Shown here in pieces: positions 7,096-55,034 of a stretch of DNA of 64,000 bases (positions are counted from its first letter, which is position 1; each line of letters begins with the position of its first letter). The translations under genes were made by a program, and so were the position numbers. The notes under the pieces were generated by a model that saw only the letters and a program-made list of their open reading frames with translations, was not told where the DNA came from and made no database searches. Location of the stretch: assembly GCF_030818015.1 (NCBI RefSeq), contig NZ_JAUSZX010000001.1, forward strand, positions 4,588,001 to 4,652,000, given 5' to 3'. The DNA comes from Arthrobacter globiformis. GTDB taxonomy: Bacteria > Actinomycetota > Actinomycetes > Actinomycetales > Micrococcaceae.

Positions 7096-7125
7096 ATCCC
7101 ACATGTAAGAGGGTTGGAGGCAGCG

Positions 7126-7705
7126 GTGGCTGGTCAACGGATTGGGTACGTCCGCGTGAGCACGCTGGATCAGAACGAGAAACGCCAGCTCGACGGCTTG
7201 ATCCTGGACCGGGTGTTCACGGACAAGGCGTCCGGCAGGGACACAGCCAGACCACAACGGGCCGGATTGCTGGGCTTCGCCCGCGACGGGGACACCGTCG
7301 TCGTGCACAGCATGGACCGGCTGGCCCGCAACCTGGATGACCTGCGCGCCCTGGTCCAACGCCTGACCCGCAAAGGGCGTCCGGGTGGAGTTCGTCAAGG
7401 AGCACCTGCTCTTCACCGGGGAGGACTCCCCAATGGCCAACCTCATGCTCTCCGTCATGGGCGCGTTCGCGGAATTTGAACGCTCACTGATCAGGGAACG
7501 CCAGCGGGAAGGTATCGCCCTGGCGAAGCACCGCGGCGCTTATAAAGGGCGGAAAAAGACGCTTACTCAGGAACGGGCGGCGGAGCTGGTCCAGCGGGCG
7601 GCTAGCGGAATTCCCAAGTCCGCCCTCGCCATGGATTACGGCATCAGCCGGGAAACGGTGTACCAGTACCTGCGACAGGCGCGGCTTCCTACCCCCACTT
7701 CTTGA
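7126..7705 (+). pseudogene. Serine resolvase/invertase, frameshifted
   Basis: The first frame starts at GTG 7126 (GGAGG at 7116-7120) with the resolvase N-terminus RIGYVRVSTLDQNEKRQLDG, including the catalytic Ser, and HSMDRLARNLDDL. It then shifts at a GGG run at 7375-7377: with one G fewer it would read on as VEFVKEHLLFTGEDSPMANLML, AFAEFERSLIRERQREGI and a C-terminal helix-turn-helix (GIPKSALAMDYGISRETVYQYL). The total of about 190 residues is normal for a Tn3-type resolvase. The frameshift is either a real inactivation or a base-calling error. It sits beside the left island repeat, so it is the natural candidate for having moved or trimmed the island. Confidence 0.85.
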
Positions 7706-7711
7706 GCCGCT

Positions 7712-8749
7712 CTACTCGGTGTCCGGTTCGGCCCATTCGAGGGCTGCGACGAGGTGCCCTTCGTTGGGAAGGGCTTGTTGCTCTGCTGCGGGGAGTTTGT
7801 CGTAGGTGTAGGCCGCTACGGCCATGGGTGAGGTTGACCGGCCCAGGCTGTAGCGGACACTGCGGTCATTCTTCGTTCCGCAGATCAAGATGCCCACGGT
7901 TTCGTTGTGGTAGTCGCGGCGGAGCATGTCATCGACCAGGGCGACGTAGAAGTTCAATTTGCCGGCGTATTCGGGCTGAAACTTACCGGTTTTGAGCTCG
8001 ATGACCACGTACCGGAGCTGCTCAATGTGAAAGAAGAGCAGGTCGACGTAGTAGTCATCGCCATCGACGTCGAAATGGACTTGGCGGCCCACGAACGCAA
8101 AGCCCGGTCCCAGCTCCTGCAAGGTTTCGCTGATCCGGCTTGTCAGCGCGTTCTCCAGGTCACGCTCTGCGACTTCACCGGAGAGACCGAGGAATTCGAA
8201 GTTGTAAGGGTCCTTTGCCATCTGCTGGGCAAGTTCAGAGTCAGCGGCCGCCAAGTGCCGAGTGAAATTGGATGGTGCTGTCCCGGTGCGTTCCATGGAC
8301 CGGTTCATCATCATGTTCAGCAGCACGTTCCGGGACCAGCCGTACTGGACGGCCGCGGCAGCGTACCAGTCCCGCTCCTCGGCGCTGGCTGCCTTGTCTA
8401 GAATCATCCGAATGTGACCCCACGGCAAATGTGCCACAGCCTGTGGCACATTTTCGTCCTCTCCCCACGCCCGCACCATCGCGGTCATGTACTGCAGACT
8501 CCGGTACGACAGGCCCTTCATATCCGGAAAGGCGGCCGCCAGATCCGCAGCCAACCGCCGGATAACGCCACTCCCCCAGCCCTGGCTTTCCTGCCGGACG
8601 ATGATGTCCCTGCCGAGCGACCAATACAACTCGATGACCAGCGTGTTGACGGTCCTCTGGGCGTGGATCCTGGCACCAGAGATCCGGGTCTTCAACTCCT
8701 CCAGCAGGTCCGCGTAGTCCGCTGGCAGATCGATTTCTGAAGACACCAT
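7712..8749 (-). CDS. DUF1016/YhcG-family PD-(D/E)xK nuclease-like protein
   Basis: A 345-residue protein. The N-terminal part has the YhcG alpha-helical module (VIELYWSLGRDI, PDMKGLSYRSLQYM, QAVAHLPWGH). The C-terminal part is a PD-(D/E)xK nuclease fold with FVGRQ, DDYYVDLLFFH and VVIELKTGKFQPEYAGKLNFYV, carrying the D…ExK catalytic residues. The family occurs next to restriction and other defence genes, and its function is not settled. The stop lies 6 bases from the resolvase stop (convergent). A perfect palindrome lies just upstream of the start, and a shorter copy lies inside the gene in the HLPWGH-encoding stretch. Confidence 0.92.
   Translation of the reverse strand: MVSSEIDLPADYADLLEELKTRISGARIHAQRTVNTLVIELYWSLGRDIIVRQESQGWGSGVIRRLAADLAAAFPDMKGLSYRSLQYMTAMVRAWGEDENVPQAVAHLPWGHIRMILDKAASAEERDWYAAAAVQYGWSRNVLLNMMMNRSMERTGTAPSNFTRHLAAADSELAQQMAKDPYNFEFLGLSGEVAERDLENALTSRISETLQELGPGFAFVGRQVHFDVDGDDYYVDLLFFHIEQLRYVVIELKTGKFQPEYAGKLNFYVALVDDMLRRDYHNETVGILICGTKNDRSVRYSLGRSTSPMAVAAYTYDKLPAAEQQALPNEGHLVAALEWAEPDTE
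8427..8453. repeat. Palindrome inside the DUF1016 gene
   Basis: Arms 8427-8439 and 8441-8453 are perfect 13-bp inverted repeats around one base. They share the sequence of the core of the larger palindrome at 8762-8808. They encode part of the conserved NVPQAVAHL stretch of the protein. Confidence 0.8.
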
Positions 8750-9930: not shown

Positions 9931-11302
9931 TCACCGGTTGAAAGGCGTTGATGCCTCCAATGCGGCCGCGGAAGGACCATACGTCATCTTCTGTGGGGTT
10001 TGGTTTGGAGTCATCTGGCCCAAGATGTCCCTATAGAAACCTGTGAAAGAACCAGCGAACGTGTTCTTGGCCCACACTCTATTGAGAGTAGTTGTGAAGA
10101 CCCCCGCACCATTCAGTTCCTGGGATAGCTGCATGTCCGCGCAACCTGATATAGAGAGCACATTGGCCTGCAAGGGGGCACGTGAACTCGATGACCTTTC
10201 CTGTGAATCGTAGTGCTCCTTGCGGGCATTGTAATCAGCCTCATTTAAGTCCCACGGCATCTCACGAGTTGCATAGCCGCCATCCATGCTGCCGGTGCCG
10301 TTGTCCTCGTACGCACGCGTCGCCGCATCCAGCGTTGACTCCCTGTATGCCCTCGCAATGTGCGTATAAGGCTTAGTCCTTGCCCGCCCGCTGTGAGGAT
10401 CTGAGGACCTGCTAGCGGCCCCAGCGGCTACTTGTTCCAAGTCTCGTTGGGAACTCGTTTGCCTCGGCCTTGGAAGGAGCTCAATAGGGGTAACTGGCCG
10501 GTCCAGGACGAGAAAACGTCAGATCCGTGTAGAAGCTCTTCTTGGTCGTGGCGGCAATCTTCTGGTATTCACTGGCTCGGCTTTGATAGCTTCGACTTGA
10601 AGTATCGTTGAGGTACAGGCGCGCAACAGATCCGCTGTGACAGCTGTCGGAAATTATGACGATGTTCGTTCCAGGCGCAAACTTCAGCCATGACTCCCAA
10701 AGAAGATCGTCGCGCAATTGCTCATTCCAAAGCACCCAAGTTGAGTCAGATCCGCTCTCCTCGGGATCGTCCTGAGCATTTAGGTTGGGCAGCTGGCCGC
10801 CATGGCCAGCGTATGTACATACAAAAAGATCTCCGGGCTTCAACCGTTGTGCTGCCTCTCCGATAAACCCGAGGACTGCAGATGACGTGGCCTGACGGGT
10901 GAACATCGTATGGATCTCATCGAAACCTTCAGCTTCAGCAATTCCCACCATTGTTCTGGCATCGTTTTCACACCCGTTCAGCTTTCCGTCCCATCCGCCA
11001 TACTGGCTAGGGTCAACCTGATTCAAACCAATGTGAAGGGAGATGATCTTCCGGTTCCCGGTTGGCTCAGCTGCGGATGGGGTGGACGGAACGGACTCAT
11101 CAAGGCCGAGGGCTCCCAAAGTTTGGGGTCCCGCAACTCCATCGACTACCAGCCCAGAAGATCGCTGGAACGCCTTGACAGCCGTCTCCGTGACGAATCC
11201 GAAGTTGCCATCCACTATGTAGAAGTACCAGCCGGCGCGTTTGAGCGCGCCCTGAAGTTCCCGCACATCGTCACCGCTATCGCCGCGACGCAACGTCCGC
11301 AT
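9931..11302 (-). pseudogene. Metacaspase (peptidase C14) with N-terminal peptidoglycan-binding domain, frameshifted
   Basis: The start ATG at 11302 overlaps the upstream stop as TGATG. Residues 1-70 are a PG_binding_1 domain (LRRGDSGDDVRELQGAL, VDGNFGFVTETAVKAFQ, GVAGPQTLGAL). A caspase-fold protease follows, with ISLHIGLNQVDPSQY, the catalytic His in YAGHGGQ and the catalytic Cys in SDSCHSG. The frame stops at 10481, but the typical metacaspase tail continues in another frame (10440-9931: ANVLSISGCADMQLS, GFYRDILGQMTPNQTPQ). One frameshift at about 10484-10520 therefore splits a gene of about 455 residues. Both catalytic residues lie before the break. Decay, sequencing error or regulated frameshifting are all possible. 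Confidence 0.85.
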
Positions 11303-12282
11303 CAGTCTGCCAACCAACCGAACGTGATCTGCTTGCCTTCCAAACCAAGGCCGGCTGTGGCGAGCCGGTACATCCAGGTGTGCACTCCAAACATCTTTGC
11401 CTTGCCGAATACCAGATAGCGGATTGCGTCCGCTGACACGGTCATCTCACTCACAGGAGCTCTGCCATCAACGCCGATTTCAGCTATCACGTCACCGTTG
11501 TCGTCGAGGGCTTGGATTCCTTTCCACCAACTCTTATGCGATGCCAGCTCGAGGGTCACTTTCAATGACCTCGGGTCCCCTAAGTCCTTTGCGTCCTTAA
11601 CCTCGACGACATCGTTATCAAATAAGCGGTGGGTGGACGTGAAGTCATTCCACGAGAGAGTCATGTCCCGAGACCTGCCGCCTCCGGAAACCAGTTTGAA
11701 AATCTCAGGCAACGTCCCACTTAGTGCAGGAACCAACACTTGAAGCAACGGGCCTAAAAAGCGGGCTGAGACTTCTTGGTCGGCGATGAACACGTCTGCC
11801 GTTGCTTCCTTTCCGTCGCCGTTCATCCCCGGGCCACGGAAGAATCCGGATACCGTCTTGATGGCGGCGGGAAGATTATCAACGACGATCGGAATGGCGG
11901 CGGACAGAAGGGCAGGCCAGAAGCGTTCGATGGCCTCACTGTCGGGTTCCGCAGGTTCTCCTCGGGAAGCTCGCTGACCCGCTTCGTCCCGGAAAATGTC
12001 GACCAGACTGGGAATGAGCGCGTTCATTATAGGCTGAAGACACGTCATGAATTGTGCGATATCCCGCTCCGCCGCTACGCGGGAATCCCGTGAACCGTCC
12101 GAGTCAGCAGAGGTCGCCTGGGAGCGAAATAGGTCGAAGACCACCGGCAGCGTCTGGGTGACGGCCGGCCAGAGGGCGTCCCAAAGGCCGCGTTCGAGTT
12201 CGGCGCTATCCGGTGAGACGGTAACGGGTCCTTCCCGCGTCGCGCCTGGCAGAGCAAAGCTGCTTGTCGTTGTAGTAGTCAT
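11302..12282 (-). CDS. Unrecognised protein with repeated amphipathic segments, coupled to the metacaspase
   Basis: 326 residues, no recognised domain. The first 210 residues hold four related segments of about 25-30 residues rich in Leu, Ile, Pro and Phe: LWDALWPAVTQTLPVVFDLF, LQPIMNALIPSLVDIF, FWPALLSAAIPIVVDNLPA and FLGPLLQVLVPALSGTLPEI. They look like membrane-active or oligomerising amphipathic helices. A beta-type C-terminal domain of about 120 residues follows (MTLSWNDFTSTHRLF onward). ATG 12282 is chosen because GGGAG is 9 bases upstream; ATG 12291 is the alternative. The stop overlaps the metacaspase start, so the two are made together. A substrate or effector released by the protease is one reading. 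Confidence 0.75.
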   Translation of the reverse strand: MTTTTTSSFALPGATREGPVTVSPDSAELERGLWDALWPAVTQTLPVVFDLFRSQATSADSDGSRDSRVAAERDIAQFMTCLQPIMNALIPSLVDIFRDEAGQRASRGEPAEPDSEAIERFWPALLSAAIPIVVDNLPAAIKTVSGFFRGPGMNGDGKEATADVFIADQEVSARFLGPLLQVLVPALSGTLPEIFKLVSGGGRSRDMTLSWNDFTSTHRLFDNDVVEVKDAKDLGDPRSLKVTLELASHKSWWKGIQALDDNGDVIAEIGVDGRAPVSEMTVSADAIRYLVFGKAKMFGVHTWMYRLATAGLGLEGKQITFGWLAD

Positions 12283-13093
12283 AGTGTGCATCTCCCTGAT
12301 GCGAAAGTCGGTATCTTTTTTGGAAGCAAGCCGTCTGGGGACAGCGGCCGGCGCATTAGACTGCGATCGCGAAAGCTTAAGGCATTCGAGTTGTCTCTGG
12401 GATTGTCGATCCAGAGCGCTGCAAGTGTTGCATCACCCGCGTTACTCAGGCGTTACGACCGAACCCTATGGCGCTTCCTCTAAATGCGGGGCCTGCTGGC
12501 TGGAATGTTTCAGCGGTGCCGACAACGACTGTCTGAGTGACCGTCGGTGGTCACGGAGCAGGGCTACTGCTGCCGAGTTCGGACCGGCGGCGGGACCGCC
12601 CATTCCATGGCCACCGCCGCGCCCCGCTGCAGTCCGTATGGGAGCAATTCCGCTTCCGTGCGTTGGTCTAACGCGATGGCACCTTGCCTTAGAGTCCGGC
12701 AAGCGGTCTAGCCAACGGTTCACCTAGTGCACTCACTTTCTTTACACCCAAAAACTCGAAAGACTCAGTTGCTAGTGGATTACAGGAGATCGGCAACGGT
12801 CTCCGAATCGAATCGGGAGGTCTCACCCCAAGGTTCAATTGAAGGTAAGCTTCGTAATGCTTTTGTTAGCGGCCATGAAAAACTGCCCATAGGCGGCGAC
12901 GAAAATGCCCGGGGCGAATTCAAGGGGACGATGCAACACCGGAGATCAGTGGACCATAAGTAGATCCGAGGCGCTCGGCCGGGTGTCCCAGTCGAGTATC
13001 TTGCGTGGTCCGGCGTTGAGTTCCTGGGCGACGTGCTCGATCCTCGGGTCCGTAGTCGTTCAAGTCGGTGCCTTTGGGGCAACCCTTGACCGA
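12283..13093. other. Stretch without a supportable gene
   Basis: Upstream of the metacaspase operon. Several frames are open on both strands but none has a ribosome binding site plus recognisable composition. The promoter of the minus-strand operon should lie in the first 150 bases; I cannot point to -35/-10 hexamers. Confidence 0.5.
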
Positions 13094-13410
13094 TCAGGGA
13101 CCGGCTCCTTCAGTTCCCTCTCGATTCTCGTCCAGCTCCGCAATGGCGGATGCTGTCCTTTCGCTGTCACCTTGGGCGACGACGACGTCGCGCAACTGCC
13201 GGACCGCCGCACGAACGCTGGCCGAGGAAATAGCATTTTCCGCGCCAGCGAAGTGCTGGTTACCCGCCACGATGACGCCGCCGGTTAGTTGCCGATAGGG
13301 CCCTTCTTGACCAGTACAGCGACTAGGGTTTCCGCAGTATCAGCCCTGTGACTATTCTGCAGTCCTGGTCCCAGGGCGTGGATGGTCTCTGGAAGGCATG
13401 CCGAAGCAAC
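13094..13410 (-). pseudogene. Two overlapping gene remnants
   Basis: Minus strand. A frame ending with TAA at 13285-13287 reads …LPETIHALGPGLQNS…ETLVAVLVKKGPIGN and looks like the tail of a helical protein. Overlapping it, a second frame ending at 13094 reads LTGGVIVAGNQHFAGAENAI and then a helical segment (SVRAAVRQLRDVVVAQG), a pattern I associate with small helical modules near conflict-system proteins. Neither has a clear start, so both look like debris. Low certainty. Confidence 0.3.
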
Positions 13411-13462
13411 CTACGGCGTGTGAGCACGGGAGTTGATTGTTCAACATTGCCCAACCACCAAG

Positions 13463-13485
13463 GATATGACTAGATAAGTCATATC
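13463..13485. promoter_or_regulatory. AT-rich palindrome
   Basis: GATATGACT (13463-13471) and AGTCATATC (13477-13485) are perfect 9-bp arms around AGATA. It stands out as AT-rich in a GC-rich setting and could be a regulator-binding site. The nearest intact genes are the small plus-strand gene at 13898 and the metacaspase operon on the other strand; 13486-13897 holds nothing else I can support. Confidence 0.4.
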
Positions 13486-13897
13486 GATTCGAAGACAAGT
13501 CACAGGGGGTGCGCGCCAGATTGCCAAGGCCATTGGAACGCTACGGGGTTTCCGAGCCGCAGCCACGAGCCCGTGTAGCCGTCAATTCCACAGCAAGCGA
13601 GTGCGGCTTGCTGAGGGCCAAGCTGCAACGACGGGACACCCCTCCTGTAAACCATCGCTGGAAGCAGTATGCGGCAACGAATAATCGTAGGGCGGGGGGC
13701 CGCTGCGAATGCCGATATATAAACCCGGGCGGGCATAACCTTGAGCAAATCTTTAGCCAAGACTGGGGGAGTCCTGAGTCACGCACGAAAGCATCAAGCT
13801 ACTGACTCCCTGATGGGACGAGCGGTCGGGGCAACCGAGATTTGGGCGAGGAGCGTCCAATCTTCCAGCATGAAACAGAAGGGTAAAGTGAGTCGCC

Positions 13898-14137
13898 ATG
13901 ACAAACGATAGCTCTCCATCACAGGAGTCCAATCGAGGGATCCCGCCCATGGGTACCTTGGTCATTCGCACTTGGTACGATCGGGACCAGTCGCCTCATT
14001 TTCGCGCCAGGCTAACGTATGGCCAGGGTCCGGACGAAGAACCCCGCCAAGTTGTCACAGCCGACCCTGACGAAGCTCTGCGTATTGTGCGCCGGTGGCT
14101 CGTTGCTCAACCGGGTGGTATCCCCAGCGAAGGGTAA
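13898..14137 (+). CDS. Small hypothetical protein (79 residues)
   Basis: After a short Ser/Gln-rich start, the protein reads MGTLVIRTWYDRDQSPHFRARLTYG, then a VTADPDEALRIVRRWL helix: a compact alpha/beta unit of the kind often found as stand-alone actinobacterial proteins. The alternation of strands and a C-terminal amphipathic helix, and codon use matching its neighbours, argue that it is real. It is convergent with the SARP-type regulator gene. The ribosome binding site is weak (AAAGTGAG). Function unknown. Confidence 0.65.
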   Translation: MTNDSSPSQESNRGIPPMGTLVIRTWYDRDQSPHFRARLTYGQGPDEEPRQVVTADPDEALRIVRRWLVAQPGGIPSEG

Positions 14138-14265: not shown

Positions 14266-14991
14266 TTAGCCTGGAGTGTCACCCCAGCGGACAAGCGCCA
14301 TAAGCCCTCGAATTGTCTCCGACGGGACAAGCCCAGTATCCGCCTTCAGCTGCATCTCATACCTCTCGAAAGCCTGATATGCTGCGGCGTTGTTGCCTTG
14401 CTGTCGCTCAGCCTGAATTAGGATCCCTACGGCTTTCTCATAGAGCGGTTCAAGTTCCAGTGCTGCCTCGGAGGCCTCCACTGCCGTTTCATAGTCGCAG
14501 CGGGTGAGTGACTCGGTGGCTATAACGAGAAGGGCGCGCAGCCGCCCCTGCCTAAGCCTGGTCTGCTCAAAAACGATCCAGTCTTCATACCAACCCGGCA
14601 GCAGCTCTGCATCACTTAGCTGCTGAAGGCATGAAGCCGCGTTGCCCTTCAGGCCCTGCTGGCTCAGTTGCCGGATCTGCGCGCGGACGAGGTTGAGATC
14701 CACATCTACTTCGTCGCTCAGGGACAACACTGCTCCACTGTTGATCAACAGCCCTGGCACCTGCTTCCTGACTAGATGCAGGCTCACCCGCAGACTTTCT
14801 AAGGCTCGAGGCTCGGAACACTCGGGCCAAAGCAGCCCAATCAGGTAGCTCCGCGGACGCGGTCCGTATAACGCCAGCGCGGTAATCAGCTTTTGCTGGC
14901 GTGCTGAGACACGCACGATATGAGCGCCCGAAATGAGCTGCCATGACTGAAGCAAACTGAGCCGAAATTCACCATAGTCACCTTTGCCCAT
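14266..14991 (-). CDS. SARP-type regulator with BTAD domain
   Basis: About 241 residues. An N-terminal winged-helix segment (RVSARQQKLITALALYG, RSYLIGLLWPE, ALESLRVSLHLVRKQVPGLL) is followed by a bacterial transcriptional activation domain of TPR-like helices (LLPGWYEDWIVFEQTRLRQ, RCDYETAVEASEAALELEPLYEKAVGILIQAE, YEMQLKADTGLVPSETIRGL). These are classic features of the small SARP/AfsR class that activates secondary metabolism or accessory loci. ATG 14991 follows GGGGGTA; a TTG 26 codons upstream has no advantage. No biosynthetic cluster is adjacent, so its target is not evident. Confidence 0.88.
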   Translation of the reverse strand: MGKGDYGEFRLSLLQSWQLISGAHIVRVSARQQKLITALALYGPRPRSYLIGLLWPECSEPRALESLRVSLHLVRKQVPGLLINSGAVLSLSDEVDVDLNLVRAQIRQLSQQGLKGNAASCLQQLSDAELLPGWYEDWIVFEQTRLRQGRLRALLVIATESLTRCDYETAVEASEAALELEPLYEKAVGILIQAERQQGNNAAAYQAFERYEMQLKADTGLVPSETIRGLMALVRWGDTPG

Positions 14992-15391
14992 GGTTACCCC
15001 CAATCCAGTGGGTTGGAGATCCGAGATAGATCTAGGAACGAGGATCCGTAGTTTCGTCAGCGATGTCAACGATCACTTTTCATATGGCGGCGAGAGAAGG
15101 AAACAATCAACACGATCATGATCCTCATCAAACACCGCCCCACTGCTAGTCGTTTTCACTGGCTTCTCACGAGTTTTCGTCATCAGGGTGCTATAATGCC
15201 GCGGTATCGCTTGCGTGCCAGTCTGGGCTACAACCCAACCACTCGCGGCGGAACGCCCGCGCTTTCCGGACCCATGGACGAAAGCCGGGCACCCACTTAC
15301 TCATTTGAGTATTTGAGTAAGTAGGTGCTCTGTTTGCTAGGCGGTTGCCTGCTTGCAGCCCTAAGAGTTGCTGTGCGAGGTCGATCAGGTG
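14992..15391. other. Intergenic stretch with an inverted repeat
   Basis: No gene supported. CTTACTCA at 15296-15303 pairs with TGAGTAAG at 15314-15321 around an AT-rich loop, a candidate hairpin that could terminate either flanking gene. A TATAAT-like hexamer lies at 15192-15197 but without a matching -35. Confidence 0.4.
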
Positions 15392-38006: not shown

Positions 38007-39128
38007 CTAACGATGCGCGTCCGCTGTCGATGGATCAACCACGGCGATGCCATGGGCTGCACCGACTGCGGCGTTGGTGAGGCTTCCACCGAGGGTGCTC
38101 AGGCCCGCCTGGAGTGCTGCGTTTTCTGCGATAGCACGTTCGATGCCCTTGTCGGCCAGCTGCAGCACGTAGGGCAGGGTCACGTTTGTCAGGGCGTAGG
38201 TGGAGGTATGCGGAACAGCGCCCGGCATGTTCGCCACGCAATAGAAAACCGAACCGTGCACCCGGAAGGTGGGTTCCTGATGCGTCGTCGGGCGAGAATC
38301 TTCGAAGCATCCGCCCTGGTCGATGGCGATGTCAACAAGAACGCTGCCAGGCTTCATCCGGGAGACCAGCTCGTTGGAGATGATCTTGGGGGCTTTGGCG
38401 CCGGGGACCAGTACCGCACCGATCACCAGGTCCGCTTGCAGCACTTCCTGTTCGATGGCCAACTGGTTTGCCGCGAGCGTTCGGACACGGCCCTGGTACA
38501 TGCGGTCCGCGGCGCGCAGCTTGTCCACGTTCTTATCGAAGAGGACCACGTCTGCCCACAGTCCGGCTGCCACCGAGACAGCATTCATACCCGAGACCCC
38601 GGCGCCGATAATCACCACGCGTGCGGGCGCCACTCCGGAGACCCCGCCGATCAGGATCCCACGGCCGCCCTCAGGACGGGTCAGGCATTGAGCACCGACC
38701 AGCGGAGCAAGCCGGCCGGCTACTTCACTCATCGGAAACAGCAACGGCAAAGAGCCGTCTTCAAGCTGCACCGTCTCATACGCTATGGAAGTACTCCCGG
38801 CATCCAGCAGTGCCCGGGTGCAGGCCTCGTCGGCGGCCAGGTGCAGATAGGTGAAAATCGTCAGGTCCGGCCGCATCCGGTGGTATTCCTCGGCGATCGG
38901 CTCCTTGACCTTCAACAGCAGATCGGCCATGTCCCACACCTCATCGGCCGTGTCCATGATGACGGCTCCGGCCAGCGTAAACGCATCGTCGGAAATGGAT
39001 GACCCAGCGCCCGCGCCGGCTTCAATGAAGACCTCGTGCCCATGGGCCAGCAGTTCATGTACTCCCGCGGGAGTGACGGCCACGCGGTATTCGTGGGACT
39101 TTACTTCTTTCGGGACGCCGATCTTCAT
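38007..39128 (-). CDS. ald: Alanine dehydrogenase, copy 1
   Basis: 373 residues from ATG 39128 (GGAGGTCCC before it). Motifs: MKIGVPKEVKSHEYRVAVTP, LLLKVKEPIAEEY (Lys), FTYLHLAADEACTRAL (active His), NAD-binding VVIIGAGVSGMNAV, and the C-terminal VANMPGAVPHTSTYALTN. Oxidatively deaminates L-alanine to pyruvate and ammonia. In taurine degradation by the aminotransferase route it regenerates the pyruvate acceptor. Nearly identical to the copy at 53810 except for the last few residues (here TADAHR). Confidence 0.95.
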   Translation of the reverse strand: MKIGVPKEVKSHEYRVAVTPAGVHELLAHGHEVFIEAGAGAGSSISDDAFTLAGAVIMDTADEVWDMADLLLKVKEPIAEEYHRMRPDLTIFTYLHLAADEACTRALLDAGSTSIAYETVQLEDGSLPLLFPMSEVAGRLAPLVGAQCLTRPEGGRGILIGGVSGVAPARVVIIGAGVSGMNAVSVAAGLWADVVLFDKNVDKLRAADRMYQGRVRTLAANQLAIEQEVLQADLVIGAVLVPGAKAPKIISNELVSRMKPGSVLVDIAIDQGGCFEDSRPTTHQEPTFRVHGSVFYCVANMPGAVPHTSTYALTNVTLPYVLQLADKGIERAIAENAALQAGLSTLGGSLTNAAVGAAHGIAVVDPSTADAHR

Positions 39129-39231
39129 TGGGACCTCCGTGCGGTAGTTGCGTGTTCTCAATATTCGCCGTGCGGACGCACAGCCTCATCGAAGTATGTG
39201 CCTGGACCGGACGGGTCCAGAAGAACCAGAC
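38029..39231 (-). repeat. 1.2-kb duplicated segment, copy 1 (ald)
   Basis: Matches 53832-55034 in the same orientation. I see only two mismatches (38052 region and 39211). It starts just inside the end of ald and runs through its promoter. Flanks on both sides differ, and the MocR genes beside the copies are clearly diverged, so the near-identity is confined to ald. Confidence 0.9.
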
Positions 39232-53809: not shown

Positions 53810-54931
53810 CTAGCTACCTGCCATTGCTTTAGATGGATCAACCACGGCGATGCCGTGGGCTGCACCGACTGCGGCGTTGGTGAGGCTTCCACCGAGGGTG
53901 CTCAGGCCCGCCTGGAGTGCTGCGTTTTCTGCGATAGCACGTTCGATGCCCTTGTCGGCCAGCTGCAGCACGTAGGGCAGGGTCACGTTTGTCAGGGCGT
54001 AGGTGGAGGTATGCGGAACAGCGCCCGGCATGTTCGCCACGCAATAGAAAACCGAACCGTGCACCCGGAAGGTGGGTTCCTGATGCGTCGTCGGGCGAGA
54101 ATCTTCGAAGCATCCGCCCTGGTCGATGGCGATGTCAACAAGAACGCTGCCAGGCTTCATCCGGGAGACCAGCTCGTTGGAGATGATCTTGGGGGCTTTG
54201 GCGCCGGGGACCAGTACCGCACCGATCACCAGGTCCGCTTGCAGCACTTCCTGTTCGATGGCCAACTGGTTTGCCGCGAGCGTTCGGACACGGCCCTGGT
54301 ACATGCGGTCCGCGGCGCGCAGCTTGTCCACGTTCTTATCGAAGAGGACCACGTCTGCCCACAGTCCGGCTGCCACCGAGACAGCATTCATACCCGAGAC
54401 CCCGGCGCCGATAATCACCACGCGTGCGGGCGCCACTCCGGAGACCCCGCCGATCAGGATCCCACGGCCGCCCTCAGGACGGGTCAGGCATTGAGCACCG
54501 ACCAGCGGAGCAAGCCGGCCGGCTACTTCACTCATCGGAAACAGCAACGGCAAAGAGCCGTCTTCAAGCTGCACCGTCTCATACGCTATGGAAGTACTCC
54601 CGGCATCCAGCAGTGCCCGGGTGCAGGCCTCGTCGGCGGCCAGGTGCAGATAGGTGAAAATCGTCAGGTCCGGCCGCATCCGGTGGTATTCCTCGGCGAT
54701 CGGCTCCTTGACCTTCAACAGCAGATCGGCCATGTCCCACACCTCATCGGCCGTGTCCATGATGACGGCTCCGGCCAGCGTAAACGCATCGTCGGAAATG
54801 GATGACCCAGCGCCCGCGCCGGCTTCAATGAAGACCTCGTGCCCATGGGCCAGCAGTTCATGTACTCCCGCGGGAGTGACGGCCACGCGGTATTCGTGGG
54901 ACTTTACTTCTTTCGGGACGCCGATCTTCAT
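53810..54931 (-). CDS. ald: Alanine dehydrogenase, copy 2
   Basis: 373 residues; identical to the copy at 38007 as far as I can compare, except for the C-terminal end (here KAMAGS) and one silent-position difference near the 3' end. All motifs kept, including the NAD-binding glycine loop and the active-site Lys and His. Same promoter and ribosome binding site. It is divergent from the taurine:pyruvate aminotransferase gene, the enzyme whose alanine product it would recycle to pyruvate. Confidence 0.95.
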   Translation of the reverse strand: MKIGVPKEVKSHEYRVAVTPAGVHELLAHGHEVFIEAGAGAGSSISDDAFTLAGAVIMDTADEVWDMADLLLKVKEPIAEEYHRMRPDLTIFTYLHLAADEACTRALLDAGSTSIAYETVQLEDGSLPLLFPMSEVAGRLAPLVGAQCLTRPEGGRGILIGGVSGVAPARVVIIGAGVSGMNAVSVAAGLWADVVLFDKNVDKLRAADRMYQGRVRTLAANQLAIEQEVLQADLVIGAVLVPGAKAPKIISNELVSRMKPGSVLVDIAIDQGGCFEDSRPTTHQEPTFRVHGSVFYCVANMPGAVPHTSTYALTNVTLPYVLQLADKGIERAIAENAALQAGLSTLGGSLTNAAVGAAHGIAVVDPSKAMAGS

Positions 54932-55034
54932 TGGGACCTCCGTGCGGTAGTTGCGTGTTCTCAATATTCGCCGTGCGGACGCACAGCCTCATCGAAGTAT
55001 GTGCCTGGACCGGCCGGGTCCAGAAGAACCAGAC
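53832..55034 (-). repeat. 1.2-kb duplicated segment, copy 2 (ald)
   Basis: Direct repeat of 38029-39231, offset 15,803 bases. Homologous recombination between them would excise or duplicate pdxS, the exporter, permease, CobS/CobT-like, IclR, xsc and gabD-like genes. Confidence 0.9.

What the first reader, a model, noticed from the sequence alone, without database searches (positions are those of the whole stretch)
9931..12282. Metacaspase translationally coupled to a protein with four amphipathic repeat segments
A caspase-fold protease with an N-terminal peptidoglycan-binding domain starts on the stop codon of an unrecognised 326-residue protein. That partner has four Leu/Pro/Phe-rich segments of about 25 residues that could insert into or disturb membranes. 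A protease plus a candidate membrane-acting partner in a mobile island recalls caspase-activated cell-death modules such as bacterial gasdermin systems, but the partner does not look like gasdermin. This is the best candidate for an undescribed system in the window.
Basis: partly seen in the sequence, partly recalled or inferred. Interest (0 to 1): 0.75.

Follow-up and report, generated by a model that had tools for sequence, protein, structure and literature searches.

The report
SARP-controlled caspase and helical-protein operon
A soil Arthrobacter carries a caspase-type protease gene (broken in this copy) joined to an unrecognised four-helix protein, apparently under a dedicated switch whose relatives also sit over other protease, nuclease and injection-machine genes, which suggests a protease-gated attack or self-sacrifice module.

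Summary
The partner (326 aa, 11302-12282, minus) and a PG-binding/caspase protein overlap by TGATG at 11300-11304. But the caspase frame stops at 10481 and its p10 half lies in another frame (9931-10518), so this copy is frameshifted. Intact pairs occur in two other Arthrobacter genomes; in Nonomuraea a relative of the partner is coupled to PG-binding plus clostripain, another clan CD protease. A low-confidence model of the partner shows four long helices, a disordered basic linker and an eight-strand beta domain. No Pfam, NCBIfam, PADLOC or PDB sequence match was found for the window partner.

The larger result lies outside the coordinates. A BTAD (SARP-like) regulator gene belongs to the module, and heptamer repeats GTAACGC-N4-GTAACGC, the SARP operator layout, lie upstream of the partner. 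This operator occurs in 44 of 204 Arthrobacter genomes, all 44 among the 87 with the regulator. In sampled sites it precedes trypsin, subtilase, CHAT, nuclease, TIR, caspase and contractile-tail genes.

Best reading: a SARP-induced protease plus protease-gated, membrane-acting effector; cleavage and membrane action are inferred. The EACC1 caspase model is not met; gasdermin could not be settled. New variant of a known kind.

The parts
11302..12282 (-). Partner gene, 326 aa (329 aa from ATG 12291)
   Evidence: relatives in G023, G060 and Nonomuraea
11686..12207 (-). Partner residues 26-199: four predicted long helices
   Evidence: mean pLDDT 63.8
11656..11682 (-). Partner residues 201-209: low-confidence basic linker, proposed cleavage region (inferred)
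11314..11613 (-). Partner residues 224-323: predicted eight-strand beta domain with the conserved HKSWWKG stretch
11300..11304 (-). TGATG overlap of partner stop and protease start
10481..11302 (-). Protease, first frame (273 aa): PG_binding_1 (aa 9-65) and caspase p20 with His and Cys motifs
9931..10518 (-). Protease, second frame: caspase p10 half, out of frame with the first part
12439..12456 (-). SARP-type operator: GTAACGC repeated after 4 bases, 165 bp upstream of ATG 12291
14266..15069 (-). BTAD (SARP-like) regulator; start codon uncertain
   Evidence: Pfam BTAD 41.1 bits, cut-off 22.1; relatives
13898..14137 (+). Small ORF of 79 codons, convergent to the regulator, with relatives beside other regulator genes

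Best explanation
This is one member of a family of regulated effector operons in Arthrobacter. Step 1 (well supported by sequence, not by experiment): a small BTAD/SARP-type activator binds heptamer direct repeats upstream of the partner gene and switches on the two-gene operon. Step 2 (sequence and model): the operon makes a partner with four long hydrophobic helices, a basic low-confidence linker and a beta domain, and, by translational coupling, a clan CD protease with an N-terminal peptidoglycan-binding domain. Step 3 (inferred): the protease, whose relatives prefer Arg or Lys, cuts the partner in the basic linker and frees the helical part from the beta domain. Step 4 (inferred): the helical part inserts in or disturbs the membrane and the cell lyses or stops growing; the peptidoglycan-binding domain places the protease at the wall or senses wall fragments. 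The copy in this window has a frameshifted protease and is probably not active as a pair.
For: Pair kept in 4 of 4 partner loci found: G000, G023, G060 and Nonomuraea, where the protease is PG_binding_1 + clostripain C11. A 4.1-kb block (84% identity, flanks unrelated) in G023 and G060 spans partner, protease and BTAD gene; dN/dS 0.24, 0.13, 0.15. Operator: 24 RTAACG-N5-RTAACG sites (overlapping ones included) in 244,614 bp of 16 regulator loci, none at spacers 1-4 or 6-11, 1 reversed-pattern control; 13 of 16 loci. GTAACGC-N4-GTAACGC: 114 sites in 44 of 204 genomes, 3 control sites; all 44 among the 87 regulator-positive genomes. SARP operators are heptamers with 4-nt spacers (PMC5930380, abstract and passages). 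Model: four helices, low-confidence linker, eight strands; K or R between helices and beta domain in all four partners. C11 cuts after Arg, metacaspases after Arg/Lys (PMC4357240, passages); GCEND and SDSC present. Other proteins downstream of the operator include trypsin, S8, CHAT, endonuclease, TIR and C25 matches.
Against: No experiment. The model has mean pLDDT 63.8 and pTM 0.46 from two sequences, and no fold comparison ran. The helices are not exceptionally amphipathic, and no 19-residue mean in this copy exceeds 1.56. Segment 1 is replaced by a glycine zipper in G023 and G060. A basic linker is common; no cleavage site is shown. A peptidoglycan-binding domain is odd for a cytoplasmic protease (no signal peptide by eye; no predictor run). 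The partner is rare (3 of 206 genomes). The window protease is broken. In whole genomes the loose patterns were no commoner than their controls: RTAACG 7 against 7, TTAGCG 3 against 3. 19 of 62 genomes with a close regulator lack the strict operator. Cargo also includes families with no clear link to killing (FG-GAP, tyrosinase, GDSL).
Confidence: 0.4

Rival explanations
1. Lysin-and-permeabiliser pair: the helical partner opens the membrane by itself, like a holin, and lets the protease with its peptidoglycan-binding domain reach the wall, where it acts on wall proteins or neighbours. The partner is not cut.
For: PG_binding_1 is kept at the N-terminus in all four proteases. Phage lysins share this domain (matches annotated lysin A or endolysin). 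In L099 the operator precedes a caspase followed by a PG_binding_1 + phage lysozyme protein. Glycine zipper in the G023 and G060 partners.
Against: No 19-residue mean above 1.56 in the window partner. Partner is larger than typical holins (recalled) and ends in a beta domain.
Confidence: 0.2
2. Partner as scaffold or inhibitor of the protease: the beta domain or helices hold or silence the protease, and the real target is another host or invader protein.
For: Tight coupling and co-inheritance with two different clan CD proteases fit a binding partner as well as a substrate.
Against: Hydrophobic helices and basic linker fit a gated effector better; proteases of the two families would have to share a binding surface.
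Confidence: 0.2
3. Payload of a contractile injection system: the pair is a cargo delivered by tail-like particles that share the regulator.
For: Sheath and tube genes lie directly behind the operator in G109 and G137; by coordinates sheath genes lie within about 8 kb of an operator or regulator in eight genomes.
Against: No sheath relative in G000 or G023 at E 1e-30, and G060 is not among the 44 matching genomes.
Confidence: 0.1
4. Window copy is a decaying remnant without function, whatever the pair does elsewhere.
For: Frameshift in the protease; gene-poor, lower-GC stretch and out-of-frame debris between partner and regulator.
Against: Partner frame, operator, regulator and catalytic motifs are intact; a sequencing error would look the same.
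Confidence: 0.6

Closest known systems
Bacterial gasdermin (bGSDM) with its neighbouring protease
   Same: Candidate membrane-acting protein encoded next to a caspase-like protease; cleavage would free a membrane-active part
   Different: Predicted four helices plus a beta domain; no match to any PADLOC model (whether that library holds a gasdermin model was not checked); control by a SARP-like activator
Canu (caspase-nuclease) and the nuclease-protease pairs of PMC12799240 (abstract and passages)
   Same: Protease paired with a gated pro-effector; caspase family; transposases nearby
   Different: Effector there is a metallo-beta-lactamase-fold nuclease; here a helical protein without an enzyme family match
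EACC1-caspase two-gene system (PMC7159879, section 33)
   Same: 5' membrane-linked protein, 3' caspase, actinobacteria
   Different: EACC1 is a single-helix domain; the EACC1-type caspase model scores 21-23 bits against a cut-off of 140
SARP regulators such as PimR (PMC5930380)
   Same: SARP class; heptamer direct repeats with 4-nt spacers
   Different: Genes behind the operator here include proteases, nucleases, TIR and tail genes rather than an antibiotic cluster; many other cargo families remain unread

Membership tests
Peptidase C14 (caspase/metacaspase), clan CD | C14 profile over cut-off, His and Cys motifs | tested here: met
   40.5 bits, cut-off 21.4; YAGHGGQ and SDSCHSG present; best solved relative of the EpRS71 protein is GSU0716, 3bij, E 6.6e-62
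Peptidase C14 (caspase/metacaspase), clan CD | p20 and p10 in one open frame | tested here: not met
   Window copy only: p10 in another frame; met in G023 and G060
Metacaspase-type Arg/Lys specificity | Acidic pocket residues as in TbMCA2 (Asp95, Asp211) | tested here: inconclusive
   GC-x-ND and SDSC line up with plant metacaspase-4 in the PDB alignment; equivalence to TbMCA2 numbering is by eye; activity not tested
Bacterial gasdermin | Match to gasdermin sequence models | tested here: inconclusive
   No PADLOC match at E 0.1 for the window, G023 and Nonomuraea partners; presence of a gasdermin model in the library not checked
Bacterial gasdermin | Gasdermin fold | not tested
   Fold search never ran
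Bacterial gasdermin | Protease cuts the partner and frees a pore former | not testable with these tools
   needs biochemistry
EACC1-caspase system | NCBIfam caspase_w_EACC1 over 140 bits | tested here: not met
   21.2 and 22.6 bits for window and G023 proteases
SARP/BTAD regulators | BTAD domain over cut-off | tested here: met
   41.1 bits, cut-off 22.1
SARP/BTAD regulators | Heptamer repeats at 11-bp period at the target promoter | tested here: met
   DNA binding itself not tested
Contractile injection system component | Tail sheath gene in the same genome | tested here: not met
   No match in G000 at E 1e-30

The most novel reading that the evidence does not exclude
A genus-wide conflict regulon in Arthrobacter: one family of small SARP activators, reading GTAACGC repeats, controls interchangeable cargo operons of protease-gated effectors and injection machines, and the four-helix partner with its exchangeable clan CD protease (C14 or C11) is a previously undescribed class of protease-activated membrane effector.
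Probability: 0.3. Interest if true: 0.85.

Novelty: new variant of a known kind. Interest (0 to 1): 0.62.

Why it matters
If true, it adds an effector type to the bacterial caspase-activated proteins and suggests that the activating protease can be exchanged between families C14 and C11 while the partner stays. The operator gives a sequence tag that finds further cargo operons directly, so unknown effectors in Arthrobacter can be listed and tested. It also gives a SARP-type regulator family a place over protease, nuclease, TIR and contractile-tail genes. I saw no paper linking these: the seven searches covered caspase or metacaspase with peptidoglycan binding, SARP, BTAD or gasdermin, SARP operators, and Arthrobacter with contractile injection or SARP. 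They searched open-licence papers only, and I judged them by their listings.

Tried and rejected
Partner relatives: genome contigs with the single protein gave none and with alignment A1 one, Arthrobacter sp. EpRS71; viral contigs none; of 394 genomes of the class only the window's own; plasmids one record, Nonomuraea. In the genus 10 of 206 genomes matched A1, 7 of them only in the glycine-zipper part (model positions 104-168), and I did not count these as partner relatives. A profile search of the ORFs of the loci fetched by then found only the four partner loci. PDB profile search with the partner: nothing. The G023 partner had Pfam matches below cut-off only (C19orf12 E 0.001, glycine zippers). 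The phylum search with the protease was swamped by PG_binding_1 matches; so was the phage search. Caspase relatives on 110 plasmid records include rhizobial, Deinococcus, Rhodococcus and Synechocystis ones; five regions viewed have other neighbours.

Rejected: EACC1-type caspase; strong amphipathicity as evidence. Programmed frameshift of the protease considered: the relatives have one frame, so mutation or sequencing error is likelier. The two large ORFs upstream of the G219 caspase gave no Pfam, NCBIfam or PADLOC family, and no convincing PDB match (weak ones at E 0.15 or worse).

Selection and weak points: the 16 regulator loci were chosen by hand, four (L096-L099) also because or 16 had hits nearby. 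40 of 114 operator sites were fetched, chosen by hand; an ORF started within 400 bp in 37 of 40. 59 of the 82 downstream ORFs were given to Pfam; 23 short, doubtful or similar ones were left out. Pfam counts are at E 0.001, the first 25 of 47 families. Gene models are mechanical. The 1.2e-20 ignores kinship of genomes and assumes that searches drew the same 204. Genome names and regulator identities were copied by hand. The counts 114 and 3 were made by hand. Whole-genome counts of the loose patterns equal their controls. Exact heptamer repeats at 11 bp are not enriched in the window as such (3, against 3-24 at periods 8-15), and L005 has a second such repeat inside the upstream gene.

Full report
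What is there. On the minus strand, a 326-codon gene (ATG 12282, stop 11304-11302) is followed by a gene that starts inside its stop codon, TGATG. The second product has PG_binding_1 at aa 9-65 and the first part of a caspase domain at aa 99-228. Its frame ends at 10481. The rest of the caspase domain is in a different frame, open from 10518 to 9931. The G023 and G060 relatives have a single frame, so the window copy is frameshifted in the linker between p20 and p10; I cannot tell a mutation from a sequencing error. The His and Cys motifs are intact.

The pair is real. Of 206 genomes of the genus, three carry the partner: the window's (G000), G023 and G060 (seven further matches are only to a glycine zipper). 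G060 is Arthrobacter sp. EpRS71, by equal contig length. In G023 and G060 one base separates the partner's stop from the protease ATG. These two share one DNA block of 4.1 kb at 84% identity, with unrelated flanks. The block spans partner, protease and a third gene with a BTAD domain. dN/dS between the two is 0.24 for the partner, 0.13 for the protease and 0.15 for the BTAD gene. In Nonomuraea gerenzanensis a relative of the partner (31% identity over 80% of the window protein) overlaps a gene for PG_binding_1 plus clostripain, Peptidase_C11. C11 and C14 are both clan CD (PMC4357240). So the coupling is kept in 4 of 4 loci found while the protease family changes. No further partner was found.

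The partner. No Pfam, NCBIfam or PADLOC family matches the window protein, nor does a profile match a PDB sequence. The model, from only two sequences, has mean pLDDT 63.8 and pTM 0.46: helices 26-59, 65-106, 115-147, 169-199, a stretch 201-209 under pLDDT 50, then eight strands between 224 and 323. The fold comparison could not be run. Their hydrophobic moment is not exceptional against shuffles. In G023 and G060 the first segment is replaced by a glycine zipper. The stretch between helices and beta domain contains K or R in all four partners.

Expected specificity. Metacaspases cut after Arg or Lys and clostripain after Arg (PMC4357240, passages seen). The GC-x-ND and SDSC stretches, which by eye hold the pocket residues named in that review, are present. 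A change between two protease families with basic specificity, next to a partner with a basic linker, is what a cleavage model predicts. It is not proof.

The regulator and its operator. The window has a BTAD gene at 14266-15069, 53% identical to one in G219. In G219 that gene lies next to another caspase with a PG-binding domain, preceded by two large ORFs of unknown family. Upstream of the window partner, at 12456-12439, is GTAACGC-CTGA-GTAACGC. It is one of three exact heptamer repeats at 11 bp in the 64-kb window, and that number is not above other periods. Upstream of the G219 operon is an array of related repeats at the same period. G023 and G060, whose BTAD proteins are 32-33% identical to the window's, have a different heptamer with TTAGCG at the same period and place, once in each genome. 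SARP operators are heptameric direct repeats with four-base spacers (PMC5930380, abstract and passages). Counted in four whole genomes the loose patterns are no commoner than their reversed controls (7 against 7, 3 against 3), so the case rests on place, on the regulator loci and on the strict pattern.

Test across the genus. Relatives of the window regulator occur in 87 of 204 genomes at E 1e-20. In 16 fetched neighbourhoods (244,614 bp) there are 24 RTAACG-N5-RTAACG sites, overlapping ones included, none with spacers of 1-4 or 6-11, and 1 reversed control; 13 of 16 loci have a site, L089, L092 and L100 have none. For 21 of the 24 the next same-strand predicted ORF starts within 200 bp. The strict operator GTAACGC-N4-GTAACGC occurs at 114 sites in 44 of 204 genomes, with 3 control sites. 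All 44 genomes have the regulator: 43 of 62 with a close relative (47% identity or more), 1 of 25 with a distant one only, 0 of 117 without. I take the operator assignment as very likely (about 0.9); binding is not shown.

What else lies behind the operator. Of 59 downstream proteins scanned (of 82 predicted at 37 of 40 fetched sites), Pfam at E 0.001 finds Trypsin_2 in 5, S8 in 4, CHAT in 4, Endonuclease_NS in 3, GDSL lipase, FG-GAP, M6, FHA, tail sheath and alpha/beta hydrolase in 2 each, and one each of tail tube, eCIS core, TIR, C25, M28, radical SAM, sortilin and tyrosinase, among 47 families of which 25 were shown. PADLOC at E 1e-5 matches 12 models, among them subtilase, NACHT, ThsB-like and SAVED-CHAT. 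In other loci the operator precedes a caspase followed by a PG_binding_1 + phage-lysozyme protein (L099), and a short ORF followed by an M14-S8 peptidase (L102). In L117 a subtilase is followed by what reads as a trypsin-endonuclease fusion (by eye with the Pfam counts). This company favours a conflict role for the pair. The window genome has no tail sheath relative, so the injection reading does not fit the pair itself.

Comparison with the known. The nearest ideas are bacterial gasdermin with protease, canu and the nuclease-protease pairs (PMC12799240, abstract and passages), and the EACC1-caspase system (PMC7159879, section 33). The EACC1-type caspase model was tested and not met. For gasdermin there is no PADLOC match, but I did not check that the library holds such a model and no fold search ran, so that test is open. 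The pair may still work like them. I call it a new variant of a known kind: protease plus paired effector, with an unrecognised effector family and a new mode of control.

Certainty by step. Conserved pair: shown by sequence. Operator and regulator: very likely. Partner cut by protease: inferred, about 0.5. Membrane action: inferred, about 0.45. Whole chain: about 0.4. Window copy active as a pair: unlikely unless the frameshift is a sequencing error.

Noticed in passing
L096, L097, L098 (e.g. L098:3351-4643 and 11832-13262): The GTAACGC-type operator lies upstream of an ORF that in L098 is a sigma-54 activator by Pfam (the L096 and L097 ORFs look alike), and in L096 also upstream of an ORF like the L098 sigma-54 gene. 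Sigma-54 is unusual in actinobacteria (recalled).
   Followed up: partly
L103:1031-3074 and L121:22-2650: Contractile tail sheath and tube-like genes behind the operator in genomes G109 and G137.
   Followed up: partly
L117:129-3666; similar starts in L131 and L134: Operator followed by a subtilase and a trypsin-endonuclease-like protein.
   Followed up: partly
L072:4278-10783 and L066:86-7515: Two large ORFs of unknown family upstream of a caspase with PG-binding domain in an Arthrobacter (G219); a Deinococcus plasmid has the same order (first ORF 49% identity).
   Followed up: partly
window 13898-14137 (+): Small ORF (79 codons) that matches small ORFs beside the regulator in all 10 loci tried (the 10 picked by eye). 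Function unknown.
   Followed up: partly
window 12700-13560: Out-of-frame debris between partner and regulator; one part resembles an IS30-type transposase end (by eye, recalled), another the end of the small-ORF family (L101 match).
   Followed up: no
window 38007-39161 and 53810-54964 (-): Two ORFs of the same length with the same first 75 residues shown (alanine-dehydrogenase-like by eye): a probable duplication within the window.
   Followed up: no
window 7114-7705 (+) and 7712-8749 (-): A resolvase that appears split over two frames (C-terminal part by Pfam) next to a YhcG-type nuclease gene.
   Followed up: no
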